IMG/VR virus record: IMGVR_UViG_3300006922_000057
Location: 1 to 40,747 of that record
From: a virus
Direction: 5' to 3' (one strand)
DNA: 40,747 nucleotides
A program made the translations under genes and the position numbers. Within the stretch, counting starts at the first letter, position 1. The number at the start of each line of letters is the position of its first letter. Below, piece after piece: positions 1,607 to 24,832 of the stretch. The notes under the pieces were generated by a model. That model saw only the letters and a list, made by a program, of their open reading frames with translations, was not told the origin of the DNA and searched no databases.

Positions 1607-2227
1607 ATGTCACACCGTAACTTAACATATCTAAATAATAATAGGATAGTGTACCGTAAGTACTCTTCAGACAATCCAACAGCGAGTTACGACTGGGGTT
1701 GGTATTATGCTGATGGTACTTATGGGTATTACTCATTGTTTAATACCAAGGCTAAAATTAATAGTTACAAGTCATTAAAATGGCATCTATTAACTTTATG
1801 GTATTTAAATCCTAAATTAACAATGGATGAGTTTAGAAATTTATCTGAGTATATATGTTATGAAAACAATTGCTTTATAACTTTCGAAGTTCCTGAACAG
1901 ATATTAAACAATATGATTTATGAAGTCTATATGGAAGATCTTGATCAACCACCTAAAAATAGATTACGTAAAATAGTATTTAAAGATGGTACTGGTTTAA
2001 GTACTAGTGAGAAACTAAGTATTGTAGGTACTATAGCTGGTAAAGGTAAAAGTGTTAATGAAGACGATATTTACGATGCAATGCTATACACGCATGAGCA
2101 AGGTAAAATTACAATTAATAAATTAGCTAAGCTTTTAAATTGCACAGCTAGAACAATACATAGAAACATGGGTGAAGAACTTAAAAGAGAAAAAGAGTTA
2201 TTAAATAGACAACATGAAAAAATATAA
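1607..2227 (+). CDS. Phage HTH protein, putative transcriptional regulator
   Basis: 206 aa. The N-terminal two thirds are rich in Tyr/Trp and have no named fold. After a conserved-looking stretch (KLSIVGTIAGKGKS, about 136-149), the C-terminus carries a helix-turn-helix: ITINKLAKLLNCTARTIHRNM (about 168-188), with the typical small-residue turn. A basic tail follows. It immediately precedes and overlaps the sigma factor gene by 14 bases, so the pair is probably co-translated and could act together in temporal control of transcription. Regulatory role inferred from the HTH and context; its binding sites are unknown. Confidence 0.6.
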   Translation: MSHRNLTYLNNNRIVYRKYSSDNPTASYDWGWYYADGTYGYYSLFNTKAKINSYKSLKWHLLTLWYLNPKLTMDEFRNLSEYICYENNCFITFEVPEQILNNMIYEVYMEDLDQPPKNRLRKIVFKDGTGLSTSEKLSIVGTIAGKGKSVNEDDIYDAMLYTHEQGKITINKLAKLLNCTARTIHRNMGEELKREKELLNRQHEKI

Positions 2228-2969
2228 TGTAAAAAACTACGTAAGGTACAAGGAAGATATTAAAATATCTATTGAGAATATAAAAAGTAAAAGATTTATT
2301 GATTATACTCCAAGAGAACTTAAAATAATATTTTTACCTTTAGTAGAGAATATAGCTAGGAAGTTTGCAACTTCACAAGAAGCGTCGGGTGTTATGTCTA
2401 TTAATGATATAATACAAGAAGGTAGCTTACAACTTTGTAAAGCTGTAGATAAAATAGATAGAACAAGGTTAATAGAGTCTGAAGACATTGAAAAGACTTT
2501 AAAATCTTTTTTAGCTAAAAGAATACGTGGTGGAATACGTAGAGAGATAGATAGAAACAGAGGTACAATGCGCATACCTGAACACAAGCTAAATGAAATG
2601 CGTAAAGATGGAGGTAAAGATAAAAAGATGGTTGCTATGTTTTTTAATAGCATATTCTTAAGTATCGATGCTAATCCATCAGATGAGAATATGGTTTATC
2701 AAATACCTGATAAATCAGATCCTTACAATGAAATACTGCTTAATGCTTATATATTAAGTTTGTTAAACAAACATTTAACTTCTGATGAAGTATTTGTTTT
2801 AAACAAGAGCTATGGCCTTGATGGTAAGAAATGGTCTGCTAATGATATAGCAGCAGGTTTAGAGATTAAAGGTGTGTCTGCATACGTAAGAGTATCAGAG
2901 CTAAAAAAGCAAGCAGTAAACAAGTTAATAGATAATGTAGATCACTCGCAAGTGCTTGATTATCTGTAA
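2214..2969 (+). CDS. RNA polymerase sigma-70-family factor
   Basis: 251 aa phage-encoded sigma factor expected to bind host core RNA polymerase and redirect it to phage promoters. Region 2 spans about residues 40-128: LVENIARKFA (43-52), then SINDIIQEGSLQL (the region 2.2 core-binding helix, 62-74). Next comes AKRIRGGIRREIDRNRG (101-117), the basic region 2.3/2.4 melting and -10 recognition helix, and MRIPEHKL. About 175-240 is a degenerate region 4 with a helix-turn-helix-like segment (SANDIAAGLEIKGVSAYVRVSELK). Regions 1 and a full region 3 are missing, as in compact alternative and phage sigmas. No phage RNA polymerase is visible in the window, so late transcription probably depends on it. 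Confidence 0.85.
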   Translation: MKKYNVKNYVRYKEDIKISIENIKSKRFIDYTPRELKIIFLPLVENIARKFATSQEASGVMSINDIIQEGSLQLCKAVDKIDRTRLIESEDIEKTLKSFLAKRIRGGIRREIDRNRGTMRIPEHKLNEMRKDGGKDKKMVAMFFNSIFLSIDANPSDENMVYQIPDKSDPYNEILLNAYILSLLNKHLTSDEVFVLNKSYGLDGKKWSANDIAAGLEIKGVSAYVRVSELKKQAVNKLIDNVDHSQVLDYL

Positions 2970-8579: not shown

Positions 8580-9012
8580 CCGCAAGAAAGGTCCGGTAAG
8601 ATCTAAAAAAACTAAGCATGATGGAATACAATTTGCATCAGGGCTTGAGAAGCATATGTATATAGCTCTTAAAAAAGCTAAACTGAAGGCACAATATGAG
8701 GGACAAACTTACGAGCTTGTCCCTTCTTTTAACTTCGAACAAGAAGCTTATGAACGACAAGGTAATGGTAAAGGTGAATACCGTAATAGAGGAAATAAAA
8801 AAATACTTAACATTAAGTATACTCCAGATTTTATCGGAAGTGACTTTATTATTGAATGTAAGGGACGTGCTAATGAATCTTTTCCCATACGCTGGAAGTT
8901 ATTTAAAGCTTACGTACATAAACACTTACCGAACATTACATTATATAAACCTCAAAACCAAAAGGAATGCGAAGAAACCGTGAACTTAATTCTTTCGAAA
9001 AGAAAGACCTAG
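8557..9012 (+). CDS. T7 endonuclease I-like nuclease (Holliday-junction resolvase type)
   Basis: 151 aa. Motifs follow the PD-(D/E)XK layout of T7 gp3: Glu31 in ASGLEKHMYIAL, YEGQTYELVPSF, then YTPDF (88-92, Asp91) and IIECKG (98-103, Glu100, Lys102). The likely function is to cut branched DNA before packaging. The N-terminal 20 residues are strongly basic (MTRSRRFSRKKGP). The spacing between the first Glu and Asp is longer than in T7 because of a Gly/Asn/Arg-rich insertion (68-84). DUF1064-like phage nucleases share this layout and are the main alternative. Starts 23 bases inside the preceding gene. Confidence 0.7.
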   Translation: MTRSRRFSRKKGPVRSKKTKHDGIQFASGLEKHMYIALKKAKLKAQYEGQTYELVPSFNFEQEAYERQGNGKGEYRNRGNKKILNIKYTPDFIGSDFIIECKGRANESFPIRWKLFKAYVHKHLPNITLYKPQNQKECEETVNLILSKRKT

Positions 9013-9140
9013 CAAGAAGGAAGTATGCTGAACGACAACTTCAGAAGTTTATAGACTGGAGTATAGAACAAAAAGGATATTTAAAATATAAAGAACTAAT
9101 AAAATATGAAAGAAAGTACTTTGCTAGAGATGCAAAATAA
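8967..9140 (+). CDS. Hypothetical basic protein (57 aa)
   Basis: Unrecognised. Starts within the end of the endonuclease gene (AAAAGGAATG just ahead) and overlaps the next ORF by 35 bases. The product is strongly basic and helical (EKKDLARRKYAERQLQKFIDW; KYKELIKYERKYFARDAK). Gapless packing supports it; function unknown. Confidence 0.45.
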   Translation: MRRNRELNSFEKKDLARRKYAERQLQKFIDWSIEQKGYLKYKELIKYERKYFARDAK

Positions 9141-9333
9141 AATTGCGGCATTAACAAGAGTTGTGCAACAAATGATAAATGAAATGAATATACTTAGTAC
9201 TACTGCAATAGGTACTTTAGAAACTGTAAAATTAATACCAGGCTACGATAGAGCTATAGAGTTCTTAAAAAAAGAAGCTGAAAAAATAGAAAAAGAAAAA
9301 CAAGATGGAGTTAAGCAACAAGATACTAAGTGA
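9106..9333 (+). CDS. Hypothetical coiled-coil protein (75 aa)
   Basis: No named family. Heptad-like hydrophobic spacing over MQNKIAALTRVVQQMINEMN (9-28), a short hydrophobic middle, then a Lys/Glu helix (AIEFLKKEAEKIEKEKQ). It probably oligomerises. It overlaps the ribonucleotide reductase start by 29 bases and the upstream 57-aa ORF by 35, so it lies in the same transcript. Confidence 0.5.
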   Translation: MKESTLLEMQNKIAALTRVVQQMINEMNILSTTAIGTLETVKLIPGYDRAIEFLKKEAEKIEKEKQDGVKQQDTK

Positions 9334-11467: not shown

Positions 11468-14400
11468 CTATCTAATTACTATTTTCTTTTTACCACTTTT
11501 AGCTTTAACTCCGGATCTTATTTTTATTTTTCTAGATTTAGGAGGTTGTATTTTTTCTTGATTTTTAATTTGCCAAGCTGGCCAACCTAATAATAAAGCT
11601 ACAGCTTGCCAAGCTTCCGTATCAGCTTCAGCCGCGGCTTTTAAATTTTCTACTTTTCTATACATTCTATCTAAAGGAAAGTTTGTTGTAGCTGTTATAA
11701 CTTTAGCTGCAGATTCATAAGCTGGATTATCTAAGCTAAATCCTTTTTCAAACACTTCTTCTTTTCGCTTTTTACTATCAAATGGATATGCAGCACTTTG
11801 AAACCTAGTTAATTTACTTTTTATTGAAGGTGAAAAATCTAACAATTTCTTATAAGCTTCTGAGTATTCAGGATTATCTTTTTTAGATCTATCATATATA
11901 TCTATACCTAAATTCTTTATTACTTGCAGTGTTACTCCACCTAGTCCTAAGCCTCTTAGTTGAGAATCAATCATTCCATTAGCTACTTTAAATAACTTCT
12001 TATCCTTATCCTTATCACTTGCTTCTATTTGTTTAGTTGACATTTCGCTTTCATCGTCTCCAAAGCCTAATGCAAAAGCACCTTGCTGCAACCCATTAAA
12101 CATCATATTTTGTAAAAAACCGTAATAAGCTATTCTAGAAACTCTAATCCTGTTACTTTCAGCTAAAGTTTTGCCAGGTATTCTTCTTTTATTAGCAATG
12201 TCTTGAATATCTCTTTTTTGCATACGAGCATACTGCATAGGAGTATTAACGTATTGAAGAATAACCCTACCTAAATCAGTTGACTGTTGTTGGGATATTT
12301 TACTAGGATCAGAAGATTGCTGAGATAATTCAGAAACGTCTCTCCATTCTTTCATTGCTATTTCCTCAGCTTCTTTTTCTGTTTTGCCTTCTTTCTTGAT
12401 TAGATCTTTAATTCTATTTCTGTAAAACAAAGCTCCTCCAGAAGCTATAGCAAAGCTATCAGCATACTTAGTTGGTGCGTATCCTTTTTCTAAAATATAG
12501 TTTAAAGCTGCTTTTGCTTTGTTCTTAGAGGTTTTAGCTGCGTCAGCTATTTCAGATTCGTTTATATTAAGCTTAAGCCCATTACGTCTATCTTTTAAAT
12601 AGTCTGAATTTATTAGCTTTGTAAAATCTTTCCAATATTGAGGTTGATTTGCAAATGCTGCACCTGCTTTAGCTGGGTTGTTAAAACTCCAATTAATGTA
12701 ATTAGCAGAAGATATTGTTTGCAATAAAGCTGATCTTGTATTTAAAAACATTGTAACTGCTGTAGAGTTGTTTATGTAATCTAAAACATCATTACTTAAT
12801 TTATTTCCACCTGAAACTCTATTGCTACCAGAATTCATTCTAGTTAAAGAGTTTTCCAAAGCTAACCTATATTTTTTACCATAAGCAGCTTCTAACTTAT
12901 TTAAATTATCTTTAGAAAATATAAGATCTTTGTTTTGATTAAAATCTTGTAAATACTTACTTCTTTTATCTGTATTTAATAAATCCATTAAATCAGTGGT
13001 TATAGTTCCTACAGCCCAGTTTTTACCAGGTTTAGAGTAACCGTCACCTTTTGTTATACTTAAAATTTGATCTGCAAAAGCTTGTAGTTTTGGGCTTTCA
13101 GATACTATATCATTTAACTCTTTTAAATCTGTTTTAGAAATACCAGGTATTTCTTGACCTGTTTTGTTCCAAAGATACGTTCTTACAGCTTGCTCATTTG
13201 TAAACCCTGACTCTGTTTTAAGTCTTAAGTCTTTAGGAACATCTAGCTGCTTTTTTAAAGCTTTAAAATCATCCATTAGATTAACTCTGTCAGTAGATAG
13301 ATTTTCCATAGCTCTACTATATGGATTTAATAAATTGTCTTGGTAAAACTTCATGTGAGCCTCTCCCTTTTTACCTTTTCCTAGAGTAGTATATAATAAA
13401 CCAGTGAAATCTTCAGCAGATGGAGGTATAAAAAACTTTTGTTTTCTTGCTTTATTACCTCTAATTTCTGCTTTTATATCAGAAAAAACTTTTTCAGCTC
13501 CAATTCCTGTAGATTCTTCTATGTTTTTATTAAACTCAGCTGATAAGTCTTGAGAAGCATATGCTTGTTGAGTTTTTGATTTAACATCTAAAACTTCTAA
13601 AGCGTCTCTAACTGCTTTAACATTTTGAGGCGCATCATCTGCAAAGTAAAAATCATTATAACCTTCAGCTGCTTTGTTAACTAGCCAATCAGCTTTAGCC
13701 TCACCTGTAGAATTACCTAATCCAGTTATATTTTCTAAAGGTATTTCAATACCCATAACATCTAAAAACTCTTTAATAGCTGGAGCAGATTCAGGAGCTC
13801 TAGCAGTTAATATAAACATATCTCTATCGCCTGCTGATTCTTTAATCTTTTTCATCAGTTCAAACAAAGGTCCTTTCTTACCTTCAACAACTCTATTAAA
13901 GTCGGAAAAATCCATTTTCCAACCAGCATCAACTAGCCCCTTGCCTTGCTTAGCAAATTCTTCAGCTGTTAAAACTTTTCTTTCACCATCTTTTTCAGCG
14001 AAAACTTTACTATTTGTTCTAGCAACTGTATCATCAAAGTCAAATACTCTAGCTTTTTTCACTGTCTTGTTTCTAACTCTAGCATTAGATATAGCTTTGT
14101 CCCTAGTCTTCAATGTATTTACAACTTGAGTTTGATTTAAATCTTTACTAGACATAGAAGCTTCTTTAAGAACTTCTACATTATTTTTAACTACCTCTGT
14201 TCTAGGATATTCTATTTGTTGTTCTACTTCTACTTTTGCTTTACTTGGTGGAAATTTAGTAAGAATATTTTCAGCTTCTTTTTTACCATATCTTTTTAAT
14301 AATATTTTAGCAATTGTATTTACATTTTTACCAGAAAAATCACGTAAAGATAAAGTTCTTGAAGGAGATCCTGGATTCAAAAAAGTAGTTAATAATTCGT

Positions 14401-17400
14401 CATTAATTATAGGATCTATTGAACCACCAGTTCCTCCGTATTTAGGATCATCCTTTACTGCTCTATCAGCATCAGAAGTTAAAGATTGTGAAACACTATT
14501 GGTAATATTTTCTAGTTCTTTCATGAACTTTTTATTTCCAATTTTATTTTTAGATTTTAAAAGTAAATTAACAAATTCTGTATTATATATAAATAAGTCT
14601 TTATTATGCTCATTATGAAATCTTTTACCTCCAGGTCTTGTAGCTTCTCCAATTAAAGATAGATACTCCATAGGTGCAAGACCTTTAATTATACCTGTGG
14701 CTTGACCTGTTTGTATTTGAAGAAAAGTTATTATATCTTCTAATGTTTCTTTTGTAGGGCTTTCTTTATAAACTTCTGATAGTTTTTCGTAAGTATACTT
14801 TATAGCTTCTCTATTAGCATCCATAGTTCTTTCATAAGCATCAGGTAATAATTTACCATTAGCATCCACTAATTTAGGATTGCTTAATTGATCTCTACCA
14901 AAAGAAGTTAAATAACTTTTATACTGCTCTCCTTGAGAAGATTCCCAAAGAGGAAACCTAACCTTAGCAGCTTCAATTTCTTTTTCCCATTTTTTCTTAA
15001 AACCTGTTTCGCTATAGTTAACCATGAAAACATCATCCATAAAATCTAGTCTTTCACCTTTGCTTTCAATTTTACCAAACACATCTTTAAATTCAGCTAT
15101 ACCAAAGTATTCAGCATCTCCTTTTTTTCCTTTATATTTTTTAAGACCAAAAGTTTTCAACGAACCTTCTCCAAAAGTATTTCTTACATACTTTGAAAAA
15201 TTATCATTTTCTAATAATTCAGGAAACTTTTTAAGAATTTTATTAAAACTTTTTATAGTTCTATCTCTATTTTCTGCACTAGTTACGTTTTTACTTCTAG
15301 TACCAGGGGCTATTGGTTGTAAATCTTTAAAGCCAGATAGCTTTCTTAAACCAGGTAATGCTTTGCTCCATCTAGATATGCTTAGCTCTTCTTCTTTTTC
15401 TATTTCTTCAAGAGTCATGTCCTCTCGTCTAGCTTGTTTCTCTCTTTCAATTTTTATTTTTGGATCAACTACAAATTTTTGCAAGTGGCTAACTACAGCT
15501 TTCTTTTGTTCGTCAGTAGTAGTAAGAGACAATTTAGTAATAAAGTCACTAGCGTTTCTTTGAGCAGCTAGAGCTTTAATATCTTTTGGTGTTAATTTTT
15601 CTCCTGAATTTAATTTCTCAACTACTTCTTCTAAAAAATCTACATCGTTTAAACTCATGGAAGCTAAGTTTTCAGACTTACCAGATTTTAAATCTTCTAT
15701 TTCGTTAGCTGTTAATTCTTTTATTTTTCTTATCTGAGCGTTAGTTACAGCTTTTCCATCTTGATGTATTAATGCTTTTATTCTTTGATCAATCTTTCCG
15801 TTTTCTTTTAAAGTTTCAAAAGAACCATCTTCTTTTATACCAAAATATTCTAGAAATTTACTTCTATTAAATGGTAGTTTTTCTTGACCTTTTAATCCTG
15901 CTCCTGTACTTACCCTATCTCCTTGTTTGTAAAAAGCGTCTAATAAAACTTTTTGAACGCCAGTAGAAGTTTCTTTTAAAGATTCTTTAGCTGTCTTAGT
16001 GGTTTTACCATCAGGTAAAAGTTGATAAAGCATTTCAGCATTATCTACAATATACTGTTGAGCGGAAGTCACTTCTTTCTGAGATAATCTAGTTGAGGTT
16101 TTACCTTTAAAAGTTCCATCTTCATTATTAATTTTACCGTCTTTAACTCCAAAATCTTTACTTATGTTAGATAAGTCAGGAGTTGTTTTATAACTTTCTA
16201 TAATTAAATTTGAATCTTCAATTCTATTATCTAAAAGCCTAGCTGATGCTTCTGGCTCTTGCAACACTGTGGTAACATCAAGTTTTCCTGTAGCTGGATC
16301 AATAAATTTTTCCGGTATAGAACTAACGTCTCCACTGGTACTAAAAGTTTGATCAACAAGATTTTCTAAACCTCCTGATTCTCCGTCCCCTAAGTCTGAC
16401 TCACTAATCTCTCTATCAAATGATCCTACTTTTTTTAATGTATTTACAACCTGTTTTGTGAATCCCATGTTTAAATAAGCGCCAACATCGTTTTTATTAG
16501 CGTCGTATCTCTCAGCGTATTCATAGAGTTTTAATTGTAATTCAAAAGCAGCTTCTTCTTTTATATCTTTTGACAATTTAAATCCAGTAATTGTTTCATA
16601 TTTATTTAATGAATTATATATTAAATTTTTATTATTGTCAACTATTTGATCTCTTTGTTTTCTATTCGGTTTACCGTCTGGATTTTTAAGTATTTCAGCT
16701 CTTAATTTTCTATTATCTTCAACTATTTCTTTTGTAGTTTTCTTAACTACTGTACCTTCTAAATCTAAAGAAGATTTAATTTCTTTTTCAATATTAGCTT
16801 TATCAGCTTTTCTATTAGCTTCTGCATTACTTAAGTTATCTATATCAACATCTGGAATACTTTTTTTATCGGTAAAACCCATAAGCTCAGATACAAGACT
16901 TTCAGCTCCTCCTTGTCCTCTAATTCCTTTCCTAGATAATATACCTATATTTTCAACTACATCTTTAGCTGTTTTAGGTAATGGACTTTTTACTCCAGTT
17001 TGAATTAATATGTCTTTAATTTCTAACTTTATTTCATTTAAAAGACTAGAAGCCAAGGCAGGATTTGTATAATAAGCTTCTGGACTACTTAAATACTCAC
17101 CCATAAAAGATAAATATTCTTCTGCTAATAATTTTTTACCTTCTGGAGCGTTTGTATTTATATTATATTTATCTATAATTCTTTGTTCTAATTCTTTACC
17201 ACTAAACTCTCCAAACTGGTAATCATAAAATTGAGACATACCGTCTTTTGCTAAATTTTCAAGCGCTGCTGGATTTTTTTTATAGTACTCTTTTTGAAGT
17301 AAATGAGTTAACTCATGTATTTCTTTTCCTGGCGTATAAAGATCCATGTCTATAGTTATAGTGTTTGTATTAGGATCAAACTCAGCAGTAGATTTACTTT

Positions 17401-20400
17401 TTCTAAAATTATTTTTTCTAAATCTAGCTCCTCTACCAACCACAACGTTGACGCCTTTAAAATCTGGACTAAATGCTTGTATGCCCTTAACCCAAGGATC
17501 TACGTATCTTTTTGTAAGATTGTTTTTAAAAGCTTCAACTTCTTTTTTATATTCTTTTACTGTTTCAGGATTTGTGCTTTCAAACTTTTCTCTACTTGGT
17601 GGAGTTAGTTCTACATAAGCTATTTCATATTGTATTAAGTTTTGTAACTCATTTACACCAGATGTTAAGTTTTCTACTTGTTCTTTTTCTTTAGGGCTAA
17701 GATCCTTAAGATCTCTTAGTAATCCAGGAGCTTCTTTTTCTCCATTAATCAGTCTAGTCGGTCCTCTTCTAACATCTTCTATCCTCTTATTAAGCTTATT
17801 TCTTAACTCTATCTTTTTACTTGTAGGAATAACATCGTTCCCTTTAAGACCCATAGCTCCAAATCCGGAAAATATACCAGTTTGAACCATAATTCTTTCT
17901 TCAAGAGGACCTAACTTTCCATAAAGTTCCTCTATTGAAGTTTCAAAATTTTTCTCTCCTCTTATACTTGCAGAAACAGCACTAACTGCACTTGCGACTT
18001 CTGAAGACACAGCTCCTAATGGCCCAGATGCTATTAGTTTTTGAAAAACAGGTTGAAGAGCTCTATAGTTTTTACCCCATTTTATTGTTGTTCTACCAAG
18101 AGATCCAACACTAAAGAAAACAGCGCCAGTTCCGTACTCAGCATCTAAAGCTATTTGCATTTGTATATCTTCAACAATAGCACCCATTACAAACTTCTTA
18201 ATACCTTTCAAGCCGTTATAATACTTTTTCCAACCTAAAGCGTTTAAAGCTTGTCCACCACCCATTAGTAAAGGCATTTCTGGAATGAAACTACCAATAC
18301 CTTGAGCTATTTGATTACTTACAGATACTTTTACAGCTTCTTTTTGCTCTGGTGTTAATTCTATTTCAACACCTGACAATGACTTTACTTCATAAGCACT
18401 TGTTACTATAGCTGAGTTTATAGCAGCTATTCTGTCTTGGGGTGACATTCCTTTTGAATATACAATATTTTTAGCTTCTTTGTCATTATATCCAAACTTT
18501 TCTAAAGTACTTACGAATGTAGAAGTTGCAAGAGTCTTTAAAAAACCATCTTTCTCTATAGCTGATATGTCTACGTTCCCAGCATACATGCTCCAATAAG
18601 CATTAGCTAAGGTTTCTACTTCATCATATTCTTCGTTATATATTTTAATAGCTTCAACATCTTGCTTGCTAGCCATGTTAAGCATTTCGTCAAAAAAGCC
18701 CTCAAAATCTCTTTGATCTATTCCTAATTGTCTCAACTTAAGTAAAGATATTTCTACTTCACCATTTTTATCAACATTGATACCAGCAGTTCTAAGATTA
18801 TTTTTTAAAGTAGTATAACCACTTTCAAAGCCTGAAGGAATTTTTAATTTTATTTTAGACTCACTTCCTTGCTTACGCAATGTCTGTAAATTTATTATTT
18901 CTTTATTGAATATATTACCAATAGCTTCTCTTTGAGTAAGTAAAGGATTAGACTCTTGTTCTGATTTTATTGAATCTTCAATTCCAGATTGTGCATCATC
19001 AGCTATGTTAATCAACTTATCTATACTTGCTTCAGAAAAACCTCTATCGTTAAAAAAGTTTTTAGTTAATTCTCCGGCTGTAGTTTTAACTTCTACTGAA
19101 CCAAAGTCCTCACCAAACCTACCTGGTATATTGGTTGTTGTTGTAGCATTCTCTTCTCTTTGAAGCTGTAGTACTTGATAATTACTTTGCTTATTAAACA
19201 ACTGTAAATCTAAAGCTTTTAATTCATTCTTTTTAGCTTCTTCATCATATTCAATTGTTAACTCTTTCTTATTAACTTGATCAATTTTATTTTGTAATAT
19301 GTTTATATCTTTTGATATATCACCTTGCTTAATACTTAACTCTTGGTTTTTTAATTCTTGCTGTGTTAATTTAGAATTAAAATTACTTATTGTTTTACTT
19401 TTAAAATCTTCATCAACTTCTATACTTGAAAGACTTATGGATCTATTTTCGTCATACTCTTGCTCTATAAAAACTTTATTTTCTGCCATTAAGTTATTAT
19501 ACATGTTGTCAAAAGAGCTTTTATATATACCTATCTCAGTATTAGTTCTTAACTCATCAATTAATTTTGCTTTAATTTGATCATGGTTTTCCGCGGTTAA
19601 AGTAAACTTTTCTTTACCTGGTGTATTTTCATTACCAATACCATATTTCCAAGGGTTTCTAAAGGCATCTTTTTGTAATATATCTAACTCTGTTATTAAA
19701 CTAACCGCTTGTTCTTTGCTAGGATTTACAGCATCACCCGCACCTTTAAAATCACCTGTTGGCTTCTCGCCAACTGGTCTTATTTTTGGTTGATCATCAT
19801 ATGTGCCAATTTTTATTGACCTAATTCCATCTAGTCCAACTTCGCCAGTTGCTTTATATATTAAGTTAGACTCTTCGTTAAACTCAGGATTATCGTTTAT
19901 AAAGTTAATAAAGCTATTGTATGCTTTTTTACTCTCACTTAGTGCATCTTCTTCTATTAAACCTTCTTGACCTATAGGTATGTTAACATCTCCACTACTT
20001 CTTCTACTCTTAGTATTATATATAGTTCCTAGCTTTATAGTTTCATTTGTTCCAGTCTCTTTATTTATAACAGTAAAGCTATCACTACCTGGCTCAACTT
20101 GTTTGAAAACAAAATTAGGATATAAAGAATTTAGTTCAGGTACTATTTTTTCTTCACTTTTTAATTTAAAGTCTTCAAAAGATATTTTAACGTCAACGTC
20201 TTCTATAGGTGGTATTTTAATAATATCCTTGTGTCTTTCTAAATACTCATCTATACTTAATCCATCTACATCTGCAGCTTCTTGTATTTTATCGGTAGTA
20301 AAAGAAGCACCTTTATACTTATATTTTACAGGTTCTTTTTCAACAGTATCTTCCTCTGTCTCAACTTCAATATTGTTTTTTTCTTCTGAATTAACACCCA

Positions 20401-20455
20401 CTTCCTCAACTATTTCTTCAGTTGGTGTATTTTCACTAAGTACTTCTTCAATCAT
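11468..20455 (-). CDS. Giant multidomain internal virion / ejection protein (2995 aa)
   Basis: Likely packaged in the capsid and ejected with the DNA, like the last large protein of T7-like (gp16) and crAss-like gene orders. Regions seen: acidic N-terminus; coiled-coil-rich 200-650; hydrophobic/amphipathic stretch about 715-870 that could insert in membranes; zincin motif HELTH at 1047-1051 with AEEYL as possible third-ligand site; a helical segment 1263-1352 resembling sigma region 2; HAD phosphatase domain about 2130-2300 with DFDDT (2139-2143), ILTARAP and FYFADDAP; a conserved-looking block with NTPMQY (2737-2742); and a very basic tail. It does not show a DxDGD-type polymerase motif. It is the last gene of the unit, 9 bases after its neighbour. 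Confidence 0.75.
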   Translation of the reverse strand: MIEEVLSENTPTEEIVEEVGVNSEEKNNIEVETEEDTVEKEPVKYKYKGASFTTDKIQEAADVDGLSIDEYLERHKDIIKIPPIEDVDVKISFEDFKLKSEEKIVPELNSLYPNFVFKQVEPGSDSFTVINKETGTNETIKLGTIYNTKSRRSSGDVNIPIGQEGLIEEDALSESKKAYNSFINFINDNPEFNEESNLIYKATGEVGLDGIRSIKIGTYDDQPKIRPVGEKPTGDFKGAGDAVNPSKEQAVSLITELDILQKDAFRNPWKYGIGNENTPGKEKFTLTAENHDQIKAKLIDELRTNTEIGIYKSSFDNMYNNLMAENKVFIEQEYDENRSISLSSIEVDEDFKSKTISNFNSKLTQQELKNQELSIKQGDISKDINILQNKIDQVNKKELTIEYDEEAKKNELKALDLQLFNKQSNYQVLQLQREENATTTTNIPGRFGEDFGSVEVKTTAGELTKNFFNDRGFSEASIDKLINIADDAQSGIEDSIKSEQESNPLLTQREAIGNIFNKEIINLQTLRKQGSESKIKLKIPSGFESGYTTLKNNLRTAGINVDKNGEVEISLLKLRQLGIDQRDFEGFFDEMLNMASKQDVEAIKIYNEEYDEVETLANAYWSMYAGNVDISAIEKDGFLKTLATSTFVSTLEKFGYNDKEAKNIVYSKGMSPQDRIAAINSAIVTSAYEVKSLSGVEIELTPEQKEAVKVSVSNQIAQGIGSFIPEMPLLMGGGQALNALGWKKYYNGLKGIKKFVMGAIVEDIQMQIALDAEYGTGAVFFSVGSLGRTTIKWGKNYRALQPVFQKLIASGPLGAVSSEVASAVSAVSASIRGEKNFETSIEELYGKLGPLEERIMVQTGIFSGFGAMGLKGNDVIPTSKKIELRNKLNKRIEDVRRGPTRLINGEKEAPGLLRDLKDLSPKEKEQVENLTSGVNELQNLIQYEIAYVELTPPSREKFESTNPETVKEYKKEVEAFKNNLTKRYVDPWVKGIQAFSPDFKGVNVVVGRGARFRKNNFRKSKSTAEFDPNTNTITIDMDLYTPGKEIHELTHLLQKEYYKKNPAALENLAKDGMSQFYDYQFGEFSGKELEQRIIDKYNINTNAPEGKKLLAEEYLSFMGEYLSSPEAYYTNPALASSLLNEIKLEIKDILIQTGVKSPLPKTAKDVVENIGILSRKGIRGQGGAESLVSELMGFTDKKSIPDVDIDNLSNAEANRKADKANIEKEIKSSLDLEGTVVKKTTKEIVEDNRKLRAEILKNPDGKPNRKQRDQIVDNNKNLIYNSLNKYETITGFKLSKDIKEEAAFELQLKLYEYAERYDANKNDVGAYLNMGFTKQVVNTLKKVGSFDREISESDLGDGESGGLENLVDQTFSTSGDVSSIPEKFIDPATGKLDVTTVLQEPEASARLLDNRIEDSNLIIESYKTTPDLSNISKDFGVKDGKINNEDGTFKGKTSTRLSQKEVTSAQQYIVDNAEMLYQLLPDGKTTKTAKESLKETSTGVQKVLLDAFYKQGDRVSTGAGLKGQEKLPFNRSKFLEYFGIKEDGSFETLKENGKIDQRIKALIHQDGKAVTNAQIRKIKELTANEIEDLKSGKSENLASMSLNDVDFLEEVVEKLNSGEKLTPKDIKALAAQRNASDFITKLSLTTTDEQKKAVVSHLQKFVVDPKIKIEREKQARREDMTLEEIEKEEELSISRWSKALPGLRKLSGFKDLQPIAPGTRSKNVTSAENRDRTIKSFNKILKKFPELLENDNFSKYVRNTFGEGSLKTFGLKKYKGKKGDAEYFGIAEFKDVFGKIESKGERLDFMDDVFMVNYSETGFKKKWEKEIEAAKVRFPLWESSQGEQYKSYLTSFGRDQLSNPKLVDANGKLLPDAYERTMDANREAIKYTYEKLSEVYKESPTKETLEDIITFLQIQTGQATGIIKGLAPMEYLSLIGEATRPGGKRFHNEHNKDLFIYNTEFVNLLLKSKNKIGNKKFMKELENITNSVSQSLTSDADRAVKDDPKYGGTGGSIDPIINDELLTTFLNPGSPSRTLSLRDFSGKNVNTIAKILLKRYGKKEAENILTKFPPSKAKVEVEQQIEYPRTEVVKNNVEVLKEASMSSKDLNQTQVVNTLKTRDKAISNARVRNKTVKKARVFDFDDTVARTNSKVFAEKDGERKVLTAEEFAKQGKGLVDAGWKMDFSDFNRVVEGKKGPLFELMKKIKESAGDRDMFILTARAPESAPAIKEFLDVMGIEIPLENITGLGNSTGEAKADWLVNKAAEGYNDFYFADDAPQNVKAVRDALEVLDVKSKTQQAYASQDLSAEFNKNIEESTGIGAEKVFSDIKAEIRGNKARKQKFFIPPSAEDFTGLLYTTLGKGKKGEAHMKFYQDNLLNPYSRAMENLSTDRVNLMDDFKALKKQLDVPKDLRLKTESGFTNEQAVRTYLWNKTGQEIPGISKTDLKELNDIVSESPKLQAFADQILSITKGDGYSKPGKNWAVGTITTDLMDLLNTDKRSKYLQDFNQNKDLIFSKDNLNKLEAAYGKKYRLALENSLTRMNSGSNRVSGGNKLSNDVLDYINNSTAVTMFLNTRSALLQTISSANYINWSFNNPAKAGAAFANQPQYWKDFTKLINSDYLKDRRNGLKLNINESEIADAAKTSKNKAKAALNYILEKGYAPTKYADSFAIASGGALFYRNRIKDLIKKEGKTEKEAEEIAMKEWRDVSELSQQSSDPSKISQQQSTDLGRVILQYVNTPMQYARMQKRDIQDIANKRRIPGKTLAESNRIRVSRIAYYGFLQNMMFNGLQQGAFALGFGDDESEMSTKQIEASDKDKDKKLFKVANGMIDSQLRGLGLGGVTLQVIKNLGIDIYDRSKKDNPEYSEAYKKLLDFSPSIKSKLTRFQSAAYPFDSKKRKEEVFEKGFSLDNPAYESAAKVITATTNFPLDRMYRKVENLKAAAEADTEAWQAVALLLGWPAWQIKNQEKIQPPKSRKIKIRSGVKAKSGKKKIVIR

Positions 20456-20464
20456 ATTAAATAT

Positions 20465-22414
20465 TTATGGTGTGGTTCCAGTTCCAGTTGGTAAAGTTAC
20501 ATTGTTAGCATTGCCAGATGATACTGGTGTGTTACCACTAATGTTCTGGTTTATTAAAGGATTTGGATCTACATTTGTAGAAGTTCCTGACTGATTGCCT
20601 TTATAAAGTTTCATTGATTCTTTTAAAACTGTAGGAGTTGCCATTCCGCTAACTTTTCTAAGTTCTCTTATAAAGTTATCTTTAGCCTCTAAATCTTTTC
20701 TTTGAACATAAGTGTTTCCACTTCTAATATATAAAGAGGATTTATTAAGCATTATTGGATTACCATTTACATCAACTATTTCCTGATTAGAACTTAAATC
20801 TGCTCCACTCATATACTTATCGTTACCATACATGTTTAACAACTCTAATTGACCTTTGAAATTATCTTTTTTCAACTTAGGATAATTTGTTAAAATAGAT
20901 TCTAAACCTACATTAATGTCACCTTCTTGAGTTTGACCAATTGGAGTTCCAAAATAATTGTTAGCAAAATTTCTTTGTGAACTTGGTATAGATATAGCTG
21001 AAGTAAGAAGATTTTTTGCATCTTGTTTTTGTATAGTATTACTTAACGATACGTCAGATCTTGAAAAAGATACATTTTCTTCAGCCATGAACCTAGCATA
21101 CATGTCATTATAAAGCAGTTCTTTAGCTCTCTCTCTTTGTGCATATGAGTCTTTATTCCACTGATAAGAGTTTTTTACATCTTCTAAAGTGTAAACTCCC
21201 CCGGTGGGCTTAGGATCACCTGGTTTGGCTTCTAAAGGTCCACCCATTAATTGCCAATTGTTTTGAACAATATTCCCAGTATAAGAGGTTGTACCTAACC
21301 CGTTTAAGTCTATTTGTTCATCTACGTAGTTTCTTAATTTTTCTTTAGCTTTATCTAAATCTCTAATTTTTTGAATCGTAACAACCTTAGAGTCACCTCC
21401 ATCGTCAATTGATTTTTTGTAAGTTTTATTAATTCCTTTAAAGTCCACGTTGCTACCTTCCTTGTGCCCGTCTAAAAACTCTTTGTATTTTTTACCATCT
21501 GTTACTCCTATAAATGCTCCACCTGTTCTTTCTATTGATCTAGAAAGCTCTTCTTGAGTCATCTTAAAAGTTGAACCATCACTTTTGGTGTATCTAACAA
21601 AAGGATCACTACCATCACCTGGGTTAATATATTTATAAGCGCCTTTGTTTACACCAAAGCTTAAATCTTTAGCTATATTTAACTTTAAATCAAACTGATC
21701 TTCATTTGTGAAGTATAATGGAACTCCATCTTTACCTTTTTTAGGTGGTAATGGTAAGCCATCTTCAGTCCAAGGGCCACCTGGGTTGTTAGGGTTTGTG
21801 TGTTCTCCAATCTTATATAATGTAGCTATTAAAGGTATACCTTTAGTTCTATCAATATTTATTATCTCCTTTACTTGTGAATATTCTTCTTTTTTATAAT
21901 CAAGATCTTTTAAACTAGAGAAATTAGCTATCATTTGATTAGACAATTGGTCATCAATGGCTTCTCCAGGTTCATTTCCTAAAGCATTGTAAACTTCTTG
22001 ATCTAGTCCAGCTGCGGTTAATTCTGCTTGAAGTTCTAAAGGTGGAAGATTTTTACTTCTTATTTCTTTATACTTTTCACCCTGTTCAATTGTTAAATTA
22101 GCTACAGTACCTTCTTCTCCATAACCATCTTTACCAAACCTTAACTCACCACTTTTAACTTTTTTAGTAAGTAAAATACTTTTATCAACTTCTTTTTGAA
22201 TTTCTTGTTGCTCTTTATTTAATAATAAATCTTGCTGTATTTTATCTTTTTCTTCTTTTTCTTTTTTCTTCTGATCACTTAAAGCTTTTTGTTGCTCTTT
22301 ATTTTTCTGAGCTTGAACAGCTGCTATAGCTTTAGAAGTAGAATCACTTATGGCTTTCGATGCTTTAGAAAAACTAGTATCTAAAACTAAACTTGGTTGA
22401 CTATATGTTCCCAT
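20465..22414 (-). CDS. Internal virion protein (649 aa)
   Basis: Unrecognised by motif; assigned by place between a gp14-like and a gp16-like protein. The N-terminus (residues 15-90) is a Lys/Glu/Gln-rich coiled coil with Ala-Ser repeats (KASKAISDSTSKAIAAVQA). The centre is globular and polar. The C-terminus is a low-complexity Asn/Thr/Ser/Pro tail ending TLPTGTGTTP. Architecture fits a cargo protein that forms an ejected trans-envelope tube with its neighbours. The leader AAAATAAATTAAATG has no SD. No enzymatic motif was found. Confidence 0.6.
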   Translation of the reverse strand: MGTYSQPSLVLDTSFSKASKAISDSTSKAIAAVQAQKNKEQQKALSDQKKKEKEEKDKIQQDLLLNKEQQEIQKEVDKSILLTKKVKSGELRFGKDGYGEEGTVANLTIEQGEKYKEIRSKNLPPLELQAELTAAGLDQEVYNALGNEPGEAIDDQLSNQMIANFSSLKDLDYKKEEYSQVKEIINIDRTKGIPLIATLYKIGEHTNPNNPGGPWTEDGLPLPPKKGKDGVPLYFTNEDQFDLKLNIAKDLSFGVNKGAYKYINPGDGSDPFVRYTKSDGSTFKMTQEELSRSIERTGGAFIGVTDGKKYKEFLDGHKEGSNVDFKGINKTYKKSIDDGGDSKVVTIQKIRDLDKAKEKLRNYVDEQIDLNGLGTTSYTGNIVQNNWQLMGGPLEAKPGDPKPTGGVYTLEDVKNSYQWNKDSYAQRERAKELLYNDMYARFMAEENVSFSRSDVSLSNTIQKQDAKNLLTSAISIPSSQRNFANNYFGTPIGQTQEGDINVGLESILTNYPKLKKDNFKGQLELLNMYGNDKYMSGADLSSNQEIVDVNGNPIMLNKSSLYIRSGNTYVQRKDLEAKDNFIRELRKVSGMATPTVLKESMKLYKGNQSGTSTNVDPNPLINQNISGNTPVSSGNANNVTLPTGTGTTP

Positions 22415-22440: not shown

Positions 22441-23133
22441 TCACCCTAACGTTCCGCCTAGTTCTACCATGCTTCCAGTAAATGCTCCTATAGATTGTAA
22501 ACCAGCGCTCTTGTATTCCATTTGCTGAGCTAAAGCATTGTCATGTAGCGCTTGAGCTCTGTCTAGATCTGTTTTCTCTCTTTCTTCAACAGCATTAAAA
22601 GCAAATTGATCCGCGGCTAATTGACCTTGTTGTACCCTTATTTTTTCAGCCATAATTTGCTGCTGTAGTTGTTGCTCTCCTTGAGCTCTTAATTTTTCAT
22701 TAGAAGCTTCTTGCTGTTCTATATTAGCTGCTATATTTTGCTTACTTCTAGAGGCGGCTTGTGCTAAAGCAGTTGCGCCACCAGCGCCCATACCTCCAGC
22801 CTGCATAGCATCTAATGTATTTGCTAAAGCTATATCTGTTTGCTCCATTTGTATTTTAGCAGCCCCTGTAGCAACGCTTAAGCTAGCATATGGATTTTTT
22901 AATCCTCCTGATAAATCTTTAATATTTTCACCAAAATCTGGTATTTCTTGTCTAGCATTAGCTAAATTTGTTATATCATCATTTAATGATTCTATATTTG
23001 AATTCATAGCGTTTGCAGATCCCATTGCAAAAGCAGCATTGACACCCTGCATTGCTACACCAGCAATCATTAAAGCAGGTATAACACCTTGAGTAGGTTC
23101 TATTATAATTGTTTGAAATATTTCTAATAACAT
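22441..23133 (-). CDS. Internal virion protein, T7 gp14-like position (230 aa)
   Basis: Start chosen at the internal Met preceded by the A-rich leader TTAAAAATAAAAATATG. A Met nine residues upstream would overlap the preceding gene by 17 bases and has no such leader. The N-terminus is a hydrophobic helix (PALMIAGVAMQGVNAAFAMG). The middle has a Gly-rich hinge (QAGGMGAGGATALAQAASRS). The second half is a long Gln/Ala/Glu helix (EQQLQQQIMAEKIRVQQGQL). Small size, Ala/Gln helices and position before two larger cargo proteins agree with a pore- or channel-forming ejection protein. Function inferred. Confidence 0.6.
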   Translation of the reverse strand: MLLEIFQTIIIEPTQGVIPALMIAGVAMQGVNAAFAMGSANAMNSNIESLNDDITNLANARQEIPDFGENIKDLSGGLKNPYASLSVATGAAKIQMEQTDIALANTLDAMQAGGMGAGGATALAQAASRSKQNIAANIEQQEASNEKLRAQGEQQLQQQIMAEKIRVQQGQLAADQFAFNAVEEREKTDLDRAQALHDNALAQQMEYKSAGLQSIGAFTGSMVELGGTLG

Positions 23134-23143
23134 ATTTTTATTT

Positions 23144-24832
23144 TTAAGATGATTGAACAAATTTACTACCTACAGACCATATTTCTTTTAAACCTCCAAC
23201 GTTAGTATAGTTATCTGTTGATATTTTTACTCTAGCAAAATACCCTTTTATACCACTCATAGAAACGCCGAATACAACTTCATCAGGTCTAGCAGAGCTA
23301 TTATTTATTAAGTTTGCAACATATAAGTTTTCTTTTCTATCAAAACCAGCTCTTTTTGGTTGTCCAGTTATAGTATCAGTATATAATCCTTGATCATAAC
23401 TATAAACTTGAACCGAAGTATCTTGATAACTATTACTAGTTAAGTAAGTTGAAGGTGAAGTTAGTGGAATATCAGGATCTGTCTGCTGCGAATCTGACTT
23501 AAAATAATTAATTTGATACCCATTATCTCCTTCATAATTCACTGTTTGAAAAACTTTTTTAGCAGATGGAGAAGTGTTAAATATAAAATCAACAAAAGAG
23601 CTATTATGAGTATTGTAAAAAGTCCCTCTATTATTAATCACACTTTCATCATAATGTTTCCATAAACCACCATTAAAAGTTGTATAATAAGAGTTTTTTA
23701 AACTAAAAGAGTTTGATGGATTGTAAGTATACAAACTAGTCCAACCTTTAACAGACTCGTCAAAAGACAATGTTTGATAAGCCATTTCTTCATTAGGACT
23801 TTGTGGTTTCTTTTGCATAGATAAACTATATTGTCTATCATATATATCCCAACCTCCTACTATTTTATCTTTAACTCTTGTCACAAATCTTAAATCACTA
23901 ACTCCAGTTAAAGTTATATTACTTGAAAGAGTTATACTAAAAGGCGAAACATAAGACACGTCGGTAACAAAAGAATTAGTTTGAAGATTATTTATTTCTA
24001 CATTCATACCTATTTCTATGTCTTTAGGATCACTTACAGGAACTATAGAATTAACGGTTCCAGTGGTGTTAGTAGTGTTTTCAACCACGTAAGGTTTAAC
24101 TTCATTAGATAATTTCTCAAGTTCATCTCTAAAATAATCTGTCATACCATTTTGAGATATTTCTGTTAAACCATCTCTAGAAAGTCTTAAAATAGACCCT
24201 CTATAAGGATCTGCAAAATACTTTCTCATTCCAAAGTCAGCGAAACTTTCAGGATTATTACCAATTCCAAACTCCCCAACATAAGGAATTGTTTGACCTA
24301 GTACTGTTCCAGGAGGGTTTGTTGCCGTACCATCTTCAGAAGTGTATATTGTATCTTTATCAATTAAGCTTTGACTTACTTTGCTTTCTTGTAAAATTAT
24401 TAAATTCGTGTCGTAAGATACTGTTCTTTTTATCTCACCGTAAGAAGGGTCTATTGATTTGCTAATATTTTCAGAAACACTAAACACATTAGTACTATTA
24501 ACACCTGTATTAGCATTGTAAACTCCAGAATATATCAAGCTATTAAATCTATGTCTTTGATTTATTTTTTCTTCATTTATATAAGCCCTAACACCTAGAT
24601 CTGTAGAAGTGTTATTATAACCTCCTACTATTCTAGACTCTTCTATCATCCAGTTTCTTTCATAATCACTAGCTACTATAGTCATGTCATTAGGATATAC
24701 TGGGTATCCAGCTGGGTTCCATGGTAATCCAGGCCAATAAGAAACTAAACCTGGTGCTGAAGCGGGGCCTTGCGTTACTACTTTTTTATTCCAAAAAGTG
24801 TTGTAATAAGATACTTTTGTTATAGTTGACAT
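23144..24832 (-). CDS. Tail nozzle protein 2 (562 aa)
   Basis: Beta-rich structural protein of a type common in marine short-tailed phages. Recognisable stretches include WMIEESRIVGGYNN, ESKVSQSLIDKDTIYT, MRKYFADPYRGSILRLSRDG and EISQNGMTDYFRD. These resemble the distal half of long nozzle/tubular proteins (P22 gp10-like, T7 gp12-like, crAss muzzle). It follows the 1199-aa nozzle protein after a 9-base gap and probably assembles with it below the connector. A split of a single ancestral nozzle gene is possible. Leader TAATAAAAATATATG without SD. Confidence 0.65.
   Translation of the reverse strand: MSTITKVSYYNTFWNKKVVTQGPASAPGLVSYWPGLPWNPAGYPVYPNDMTIVASDYERNWMIEESRIVGGYNNTSTDLGVRAYINEEKINQRHRFNSLIYSGVYNANTGVNSTNVFSVSENISKSIDPSYGEIKRTVSYDTNLIILQESKVSQSLIDKDTIYTSEDGTATNPPGTVLGQTIPYVGEFGIGNNPESFADFGMRKYFADPYRGSILRLSRDGLTEISQNGMTDYFRDELEKLSNEVKPYVVENTTNTTGTVNSIVPVSDPKDIEIGMNVEINNLQTNSFVTDVSYVSPFSITLSSNITLTGVSDLRFVTRVKDKIVGGWDIYDRQYSLSMQKKPQSPNEEMAYQTLSFDESVKGWTSLYTYNPSNSFSLKNSYYTTFNGGLWKHYDESVINNRGTFYNTHNSSFVDFIFNTSPSAKKVFQTVNYEGDNGYQINYFKSDSQQTDPDIPLTSPSTYLTSNSYQDTSVQVYSYDQGLYTDTITGQPKRAGFDRKENLYVANLINNSSARPDEVVFGVSMSGIKGYFARVKISTDNYTNVGGLKEIWSVGSKFVQSS

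What the first reader, a model, noticed from the sequence alone, without database searches (positions are those of the whole stretch)
11468..20455. 2995-residue ejection protein combining zincin, HAD and other modules
The protein occupies 22% of the window. It holds an HExxH zincin motif, a complete HAD motif I (DFDDT) with downstream Thr and DD motifs, a likely membrane-active stretch and a conserved C-terminus. Delivering a protease and a phosphatase-like enzyme with the genome would be a means to act on the host before any phage gene is expressed.
Basis: partly seen in the sequence, partly recalled or inferred. Interest (0 to 1): 0.6.

Follow-up and report, generated by a model that had tools for sequence, protein, structure and literature searches.

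The report
Giant phage ejection protein, swappable enzymes
A marine phage of Flavobacteriia-type bacteria encodes a giant protein, probably injected with its DNA, that has an almost constant tail end and a fast-changing front end carrying a protease, a domain resembling a transcription-initiation (sigma) factor and a phosphatase; it belongs to a known class of injected multi-tool phage proteins but has an undescribed combination of tools.

Summary
HExxH sits in a predicted zincin fold with an invariant third acid, E1113. DFDDT sits in a predicted HAD fold, and motifs I-IV are invariant in 45 relatives. The gene closes a late operon syntenic with Cellulophaga phi38:1 gp093-gp101; the phi38:1 counterpart gp101 is annotated as structural.

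New here: the C-terminal ~850 residues (HAD plus an all-helical domain) are ~50-80% conserved in 67 compared full-length relatives; a search with the last 520 residues found 266 IMG/VR matches. The first ~2100 residues are hypervariable and mosaic, yet 63 of 67 keep the HExxH. After the zincin lies a helical segment that matches sigma-70 region 2 (Pfam hits in three relatives; profile-profile P=3e-5). In some relatives the HAD carries, between motifs I and II, an inserted P-loop kinase (five) or an ART-PolyVal-like domain (one), so it is an insertion platform.

This is a polyvalent protein (the Iyer 2017 class), likely the third, gp16/vRNAP-like member of an ejection triad. The class is known; the zincin + sigma-like + HAD combination is a new variant. 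Presence in virions and all enzyme activities are inferred, not shown.

The parts
11468..20455 (-). 2995-aa giant polyvalent/ejection protein gene (with stop codon)
   Evidence: Open reading frame without stops; last gene of the minus-strand structural operon; 67 non-redundant full-length homologues compared, itself included
17831..18313 (-). Gly/Ala-rich, moderately hydrophobic stretch, aa 715-875; candidate membrane-active segment
   Evidence: Hydropathy maximum of the protein (KD 1.34) lies here; in most relatives the maximum lies ~220-620 aa upstream of the zincin; function inferred
16991..17569 (-). Zincin-like metallopeptidase domain, aa 963-1155
   Evidence: HExxH in 63/67 relatives; predicted helix - 3 strands - HExxH helix - Glu helix, pLDDT ~75-90
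17303..17317 (-). HELTH (HExxH) zinc-binding motif, aa 1047-1051
17117..17119 (-). E1113, invariant candidate third zinc ligand
   Evidence: Invariant in all 63 sequences of A2, within the predicted second active-site helix
16421..16735 (-). Sigma-70 region-2-like helical domain, aa 1241-1345
   Evidence: hhalign score 31.7, P=3.1e-5 against 28 sigma factors vs maximum 14.9 in 60 shuffles; sliding-window peak only here; Pfam Sigma70_r2 hits at the same place in L016, L030, L033; five helices, pLDDT ~90 over the last four
13556..14083 (-). HAD-superfamily phosphatase-like domain, aa 2125-2300
   Evidence: PHROG 415 (polynucleotide kinase) E=6e-8; invariant motifs I-IV; Foldseek hits to HAD phosphatases
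14027..14041 (-). HAD motif I, DFDDT, aa 2139-2143
13634..13639 (-). HAD motif IV, DD, aa 2273-2274 (motif II T2217 at 13805-13807, motif III K2254 at 13694-13696)
   Evidence: Invariant in 45 relatives
11591..13543 (-). Conserved all-helical C-terminal domain, aa 2305-2955
   Evidence: Last 520 aa match 266 IMG/VR stretches, 47-77% identity among the 80 kept apart from the window's own twin; fold shared with the C-terminal parts of phage polyvalent proteins in BFVD
20465..22414 (-). 649-aa gene immediately upstream, probable second ejection protein (positional counterpart of phi38:1 gp100)
   Evidence: Synteny; sequence homologues in only 5 loci, all directly upstream of the giant gene
22441..23160 (-). 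239-aa Ala/Gln-rich gene, probable first ejection protein
   Evidence: Homologues in 54 giant-gene loci ~1.1-2.0 kb upstream of the giant gene; matches phi38:1 gp099, annotated structural, E=2.6e-4

Best explanation
The gene encodes a virion-packaged polyvalent ejection protein of a Flavobacteriia-type podovirus. It is the largest member of a three-gene ejection set (239, 649 and 2995 aa), analogous to T7 gp14/gp15/gp16 and to N4 gp52/gp51/gp50. The constant C-terminal helical domain is the part needed for packaging and/or translocation. The Gly/Ala-rich region helps cross the inner membrane. The zincin cuts the chain, most likely itself, to release modules. The sigma-region-2-like domain engages host RNA polymerase or promoter DNA. 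The HAD (in some relatives carrying an inserted P-loop kinase or ART-PolyVal-like domain) dephosphorylates a nucleotide or nucleic-acid end. The N-terminal ~2100 residues are remodelled by module exchange between phages. Shown here: the ORF, domain folds by prediction, catalytic-residue conservation, constant/variable architecture, mosaicism, insertion site, synteny. Inferred: presence in the virion, ejection, self-processing, every substrate. The confidence given is for 'packaged polyvalent ejection protein with active zincin and HAD'; the sigma-like module's role is much less certain (see the section on the most novel reading).
For: Late-operon position behind terL, portal, MCP and tail genes, syntenic with phi38:1 gp091-gp101, elemo, Panino and MW202828; phi38:1 gp099-gp101 and elemo gp18 annotated structural. 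239-aa partner at a fixed place in 54 loci. C-terminal 520 aa: 266 IMG/VR relatives. C-terminus ~50-80% identical, N-terminus 5-20% over 67 relatives. Cassette exchange between close relatives L003 and L004. Zincin. HAD. Sigma-like. Kinase insertion in L030, L032, L038, L062, L066 and ART-PolyVal-like insertion in L021. C-terminal fold shared with 'PolyVal ADP-ribosyltransferase', 'Large polyvalent protein associated domain' and elemoC structural proteins. Published framework: PMC5512222; N4 vRNAP as giant ejection protein: PMC12633501.
Against: No virion proteomics for this phage or any close relative; the phi38:1 'structural' notes are by similarity and the giant proteins share no detectable sequence with P0001. 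PDB fold matches are individually insignificant (E>0.4) and were judged on the kind of fold. No Pfam domain passes its cut-off in P0001 itself. The sigma match in P0001 itself is seen only through the family profile. About 10 of 67 relatives lack the HAD and 4 lack HExxH, so neither is essential to the core function.
Confidence: 0.72

Rival explanations
1. Mainly a structural/translocation (gp16-like) protein: the variable domains are decoys, spacers or membrane-interaction elements; the zincin only matures the chain before or during packaging, and HAD and sigma-like folds are remnants without a role in the host.
For: The constant part is the C-terminal helical domain; processing before packaging is known for P1 DdrB, attributed to its zincin (PMC5512222); four relatives lack HExxH and ten lack the HAD.
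Against: All HAD catalytic residues and the three zincin ligands are invariant despite low overall identity around the zincin; enzyme domains are inserted inside the HAD in some relatives.
Confidence: 0.2
2. The protein is made late and stays inside the infected cell (not packaged), e.g. a morphogenesis factor that processes or repairs components during assembly.
For: No direct virion evidence for this phage; chaperonin genes are encoded by relatives, in places near the late operon.
Against: Position and partner genes match phi38:1 gp099-gp101 and elemo gp18, annotated structural; C-terminal fold shared with many polyvalent proteins including an elemoC structural protein.
Confidence: 0.06

Closest known systems
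Phage polyvalent proteins (Iyer et al. 2017, PMC5512222)
   Same: Giant multidomain protein beside virion genes; zincin of the described topology (3 strands, HExxH helix, Glu helix); ART-PolyVal-like insertion in a relative; C-terminal fold shared with annotated polyvalent proteins.
   Different: The paper's main text does not mention sigma factors, haloacid/HAD superfamily, phosphatases or polynucleotide kinases; no Pfam polyvalent domain matches P0001 itself.
N4 virion RNA polymerase gp50 and its ejection partners gp51/gp52 (PMC12633501)
   Same: ~3000-3500-aa late protein in a three-gene ejection operon (150/644/3500 aa versus 239/649/2995 aa); N4 gp50 also has a zincin per PMC5512222.
   Different: No RNA polymerase domain detected here; a sigma-region-2-like segment instead; no direct sequence or structure comparison with N4 gp50 was run.
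T7 gp16 / gp15 / gp14 internal virion proteins
   Same: Largest of three ejection proteins, last in the operon, helical (working analogy, PMC12633501 introduction and general knowledge).
   Different: No T7 protein turned up in any search run here; T7 gp16 carries neither a zincin nor a HAD (general knowledge).
Cellulophaga phi38:1 gp101 / Flavobacterium elemo gp18
   Same: Same operon position; the elemoC structural protein shares the C-terminal fold.
   Different: No detectable sequence similarity; phi38:1 gp101 has no HExxH or HAD motif I; elemoF gp18 has HExxH but no HAD motif I.
Polynucleotide kinase-phosphatase HAD domains (PHROG 415)
   Same: HAD matches PHROG 415 at E=6e-8; some relatives carry a P-loop kinase (PHROG 505, AAA_33/zeta) inside the HAD.
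   Different: The kinase is nested between HAD motifs I and II and absent in P0001; it is as close to zeta/PezT as to PNK.

Membership tests
Phage polyvalent protein | Several domains of disparate biochemical activity in one chain | tested here: met
   Zincin, sigma-r2-like, HAD and helical CTD by alignment, profile and structure prediction
Phage polyvalent protein | Encoded next to late virion genes | tested here: met
   Last gene of the terL-portal-MCP-tail operon; syntenic in relatives
Phage polyvalent protein | Packaged and injected with DNA | not testable with these tools
   Only annotation of phi38:1/elemo counterparts as structural
Zincin-like metallopeptidase (MPTase) | HExxH helix plus downstream Glu helix after a three-stranded sheet | tested here: met
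   H1047, E1048, H1051, E1113 invariant; predicted secondary structure order matches
Zincin-like metallopeptidase (MPTase) | Significant fold match to a solved zincin | tested here: inconclusive
   MATCAP, collagenase, ACE, selecase and IrrE recur in the Foldseek list but with E>2
HAD superfamily | Motifs I (DxD), II (T/S), III (K/R), IV (DD) on a Rossmann core | tested here: met
   All invariant; strands lie beside motifs I, II and IV in the model; HAD phosphatases lead the PDB hits, prob 0.4-0.9 but E~1
Sigma-70 family factor | Region 2 sequence/structure | tested here: met
   Profile P=3e-5, local peak, Pfam hits below cut-off in three relatives; no significant 3D match was obtained
Sigma-70 family factor | Region 4 (-35 recognition) | tested here: not met
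   No window matches region 4 above background; so 'sigma-region-2-like', not filed as a sigma factor
N4-type virion RNA polymerase | T7-like single-subunit RNAP domain | tested here: not met
   No Pfam or PHROG polymerase match anywhere in the chain; aa 1-895 and 1667-2101 were not folded

The most novel reading that the evidence does not exclude
The phage injects a sigma-like module, tethered to or released from a giant carrier by the carrier's own zincin, which captures host RNA polymerase on the incoming genome to start transcription before any phage gene is expressed: a sigma-based counterpart of the N4 virion RNA polymerase, carried by a polymorphic, module-swapping ejection protein whose HAD serves as a cassette-insertion platform.
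Probability: 0.22. Interest if true: 0.8.

Novelty: new variant of a known kind. Interest (0 to 1): 0.55.

Why it matters
How short-tailed phages of Bacteroidota take over the cell before making any protein is largely unknown. This family (266 matches in IMG/VR) shows a constant delivery end joined to a fast-evolving payload, comparable in logic to polymorphic toxins, and points to testable payload enzymes. A virion-delivered sigma-like domain would be a way to start phage transcription that, to my knowledge, has not been described. The constant C-terminal domain is also a sequence handle for finding and classifying further early-acting phage effectors.

Tried and rejected
Single-sequence Pfam, NCBIfam and PDB searches of P0001 gave nothing useful. 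tblastn of the whole chain and of the C-terminus against 50,697 phage records found no cultured relative; only a HAD-level hit in LR756500. Profile search of A3 against PDB gave one chance hit; that of A2 gave influenza HA2 and TCTP hits, discarded as noise. A sigma profile built only from phage sigma factors was too narrow (P=0.008 vs 0.039 for the reversed control), so cellular sigma factors were added. Whole-model Foldseek of the A2 model is dominated by long helical proteins and shows no sigma factor; domain-trimmed searches were not possible. A universal N-terminal packaging motif was considered and rejected: the YxxxGxxFT-type motif matches in only 20 of 67. Virion proteomics for phi38:1 gp101 was sought in PMC13288928, PMC11946311 and PMC8776804 and not found.
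Full report
OBSERVATION. The ORF at 11468-20455 is real, 2995 codons without a stop, but on the minus strand. The window is a virus record, and an identical protein is held in the 66-kb contig IMGVR_UViG_3300025084_002866 (L002). HExxH lies at aa 1047 and DFDDT at aa 2139. Composition shuffles give HExxH in 0.25% and a HAD motif I in 7% of sequences, so conservation was needed to judge them.

THE PHAGE AND THE OPERON. The major capsid protein is 36-50% identical to those of Cellulophaga phi38:1, Flavobacterium elemo, Maribacter Panino and MW202828, and 24% to those of the phi46:3/phi13:2 group. Gene order terL, portal, MCP, tail genes, then a final giant gene is shared. In phi38:1 gp099, gp100 and gp101 are annotated structural by similarity; in elemoF the giant gene gp18 is annotated structural. 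The window's 239-aa gene matches phi38:1 gp099 (E=2.6e-4) and is found in 54 relatives ~1.1-2.0 kb upstream of the giant gene, leaving room for one gene; the 649-aa gene in that place is itself variable. The size set 239/649/2995 recalls N4 gp52/gp51/gp50 (150/644/3500 aa; PMC12633501).

CONSTANT END, VARIABLE FRONT. A search with the last 520 residues found 266 IMG/VR relatives, of which 80 were kept: the window's own twin and others at 47-77% identity; it also found flavobacterial MAG contigs. Full-length non-redundant relatives are 2065-3810 aa. In an alignment of 67, residues 2101-2950 are mostly ~50-80% identical to P0001 (39% in the blocks 2101-2150 and 2801-2850), whereas residues 1-2100 fall to 5-20%. 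Close relatives show cassette exchange: L003 is 81-98% identical over aa ~100-1600, then mostly 30-64% over 1600-2300; L004 is 35-41% over aa 1200-1400 but 84-98% over 1600-2300 (alignment).

ZINCIN. HExxH occurs in 63 of 67 relatives against 0.3 expected, 1054 +/- 89 residues before HAD motif I where both occur. E1113 is invariant in all 63. The predicted structure (pLDDT ~75-90) has an N-terminal helix, three strands, the HExxH helix and a later helix with E1113, the topology given for polyvalent-protein MPTases in PMC5512222. Foldseek lists MATCAP, collagenases, ACE, selecase and IrrE, none significant. Individual members touch Peptidase_M90, M78 and ATLF models weakly.

SIGMA-REGION-2-LIKE SEGMENT (new). 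About 200 residues after the HExxH, relatives share a YDPxxG.LxxYINxxIxxR-type motif. Pfam Sigma70_r2 hits the giant ORF of L016 (E=6.8e-6), L030 (3e-4) and L033 (9.4e-4), all inside this segment; these E-values are per single record among 50 searched, and the bit scores are below the Pfam cut-off. The family profile against 28 sigma factors (16 cellular, 12 phage) gives score 31.7, P=3.1e-5; 60 column-shuffled templates reach at most 14.9. Sliding windows over aa 896-1666 and 2102-2995 score ~24-26 only across aa 1225-1408 and no more than 18.6 elsewhere. PDB profile searches list sigma factors at the right place but with E 0.5-1.4. The segment folds as helices with pLDDT mostly ~90. Region 4 is not detected, and Foldseek of the whole model shows no sigma factor. 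The phage also encodes a separate sigma factor (window 2214-2969).

HAD AND ITS INSERTION SITE. The HAD matches PHROG 415 'polynucleotide kinase' at E=6e-8. D2139, D2141, T2143, T2217, K2254, D2273 and D2274 are invariant in 45 relatives. Foldseek puts HAD phosphatases first (prob up to 0.9, E~1). Of 67 relatives, 55 have a clean motif I, 2 only the later motifs, and 10 none. In L030, L032, L038, L062 and L066 the distance from motif I to motif II is 277-278 instead of ~78 because a P-loop kinase (AAA_33/Zeta_toxin, PHROG 505) is inserted; in L021 it is 210 because of a different insert whose best Pfam match is ART-PolyVal (E=0.0026, below cut-off). The kinase is as near to PezT/zeta as to polynucleotide kinases, so its substrate is open.

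C-TERMINAL DOMAIN. All-helical. In BFVD it matches, with probability 1.0 for the leading hits and TM-scores (query) roughly 0.2-0.67, pieces of many phage giants annotated PolyVal ART, large polyvalent protein-associated domain, MuF C-terminal, and the elemoC structural protein. I read it as the shared packaging/translocation end; that reading is inference.

MECHANISM. Most likely the protein is stored in the head, ejected with its two partners, threads through the tail, crosses the inner membrane with help from the Gly/Ala-rich region, and is cut by its zincin to free modules. The sigma-like module may recruit host RNA polymerase; the HAD acts on a phosphate ester, possibly a nucleic-acid end. 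Everything after 'late gene with conserved catalytic residues' is inference.

NOVELTY. Polyvalent proteins, their zincins and their proposed early action are published (PMC5512222). That paper's main text contains no mention of sigma factors, HAD superfamily/haloacid, phosphatase or polynucleotide kinase, and paper searches for a virion-carried sigma module found none (open-licence papers only). Hence a new variant of a known kind.

LIMITS. No cultured member has detectable sequence similarity. Residues 1-895 and 1667-2101 were not folded. The counts rest on 80 fetched loci out of 266 matches. All IMG/VR records are metagenomic, often fragments.

Noticed in passing
window 2214-2969 (+): Stand-alone sigma-70-family factor (Pfam Sigma70_r2 25.6 bits; PHROG 351), also present in about a dozen of 50 related virus records.
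   Followed up: partly
L021 aa 1929-2139 (locus ~8585-9217): ART-PolyVal-like domain inserted between HAD motifs I and II, at the site where five other relatives carry a P-loop kinase.
   Followed up: partly
L004 aa ~1200-1450 and L003 aa ~1600-2300: Sharp identity drops inside otherwise 80-98% identical genes, a sign of cassette exchange between close phages.
   Followed up: partly
L005:10001-14556: Close relative whose giant ORF is interrupted by a frame change near aa 1228, so split or a sequencing error.
   Followed up: no
L097, L098, L100: The conserved C-terminal domain occurs in contigs binned as Woesearchaeota and Aliivibrio MAGs; probably misbinned phage contigs.
   Followed up: no
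L007:37267-40030: Maribacter phage Panino has a run of 15 tRNA genes with an annotated tmRNA overlapping two of them, right behind its giant-gene counterpart.
   Followed up: no
window 20465-22414 (-): The 649-aa gene next to the giant is nearly as variable as the giant's front end: homologues detected in only 5 loci although the gene slot is conserved.
   Followed up: partly
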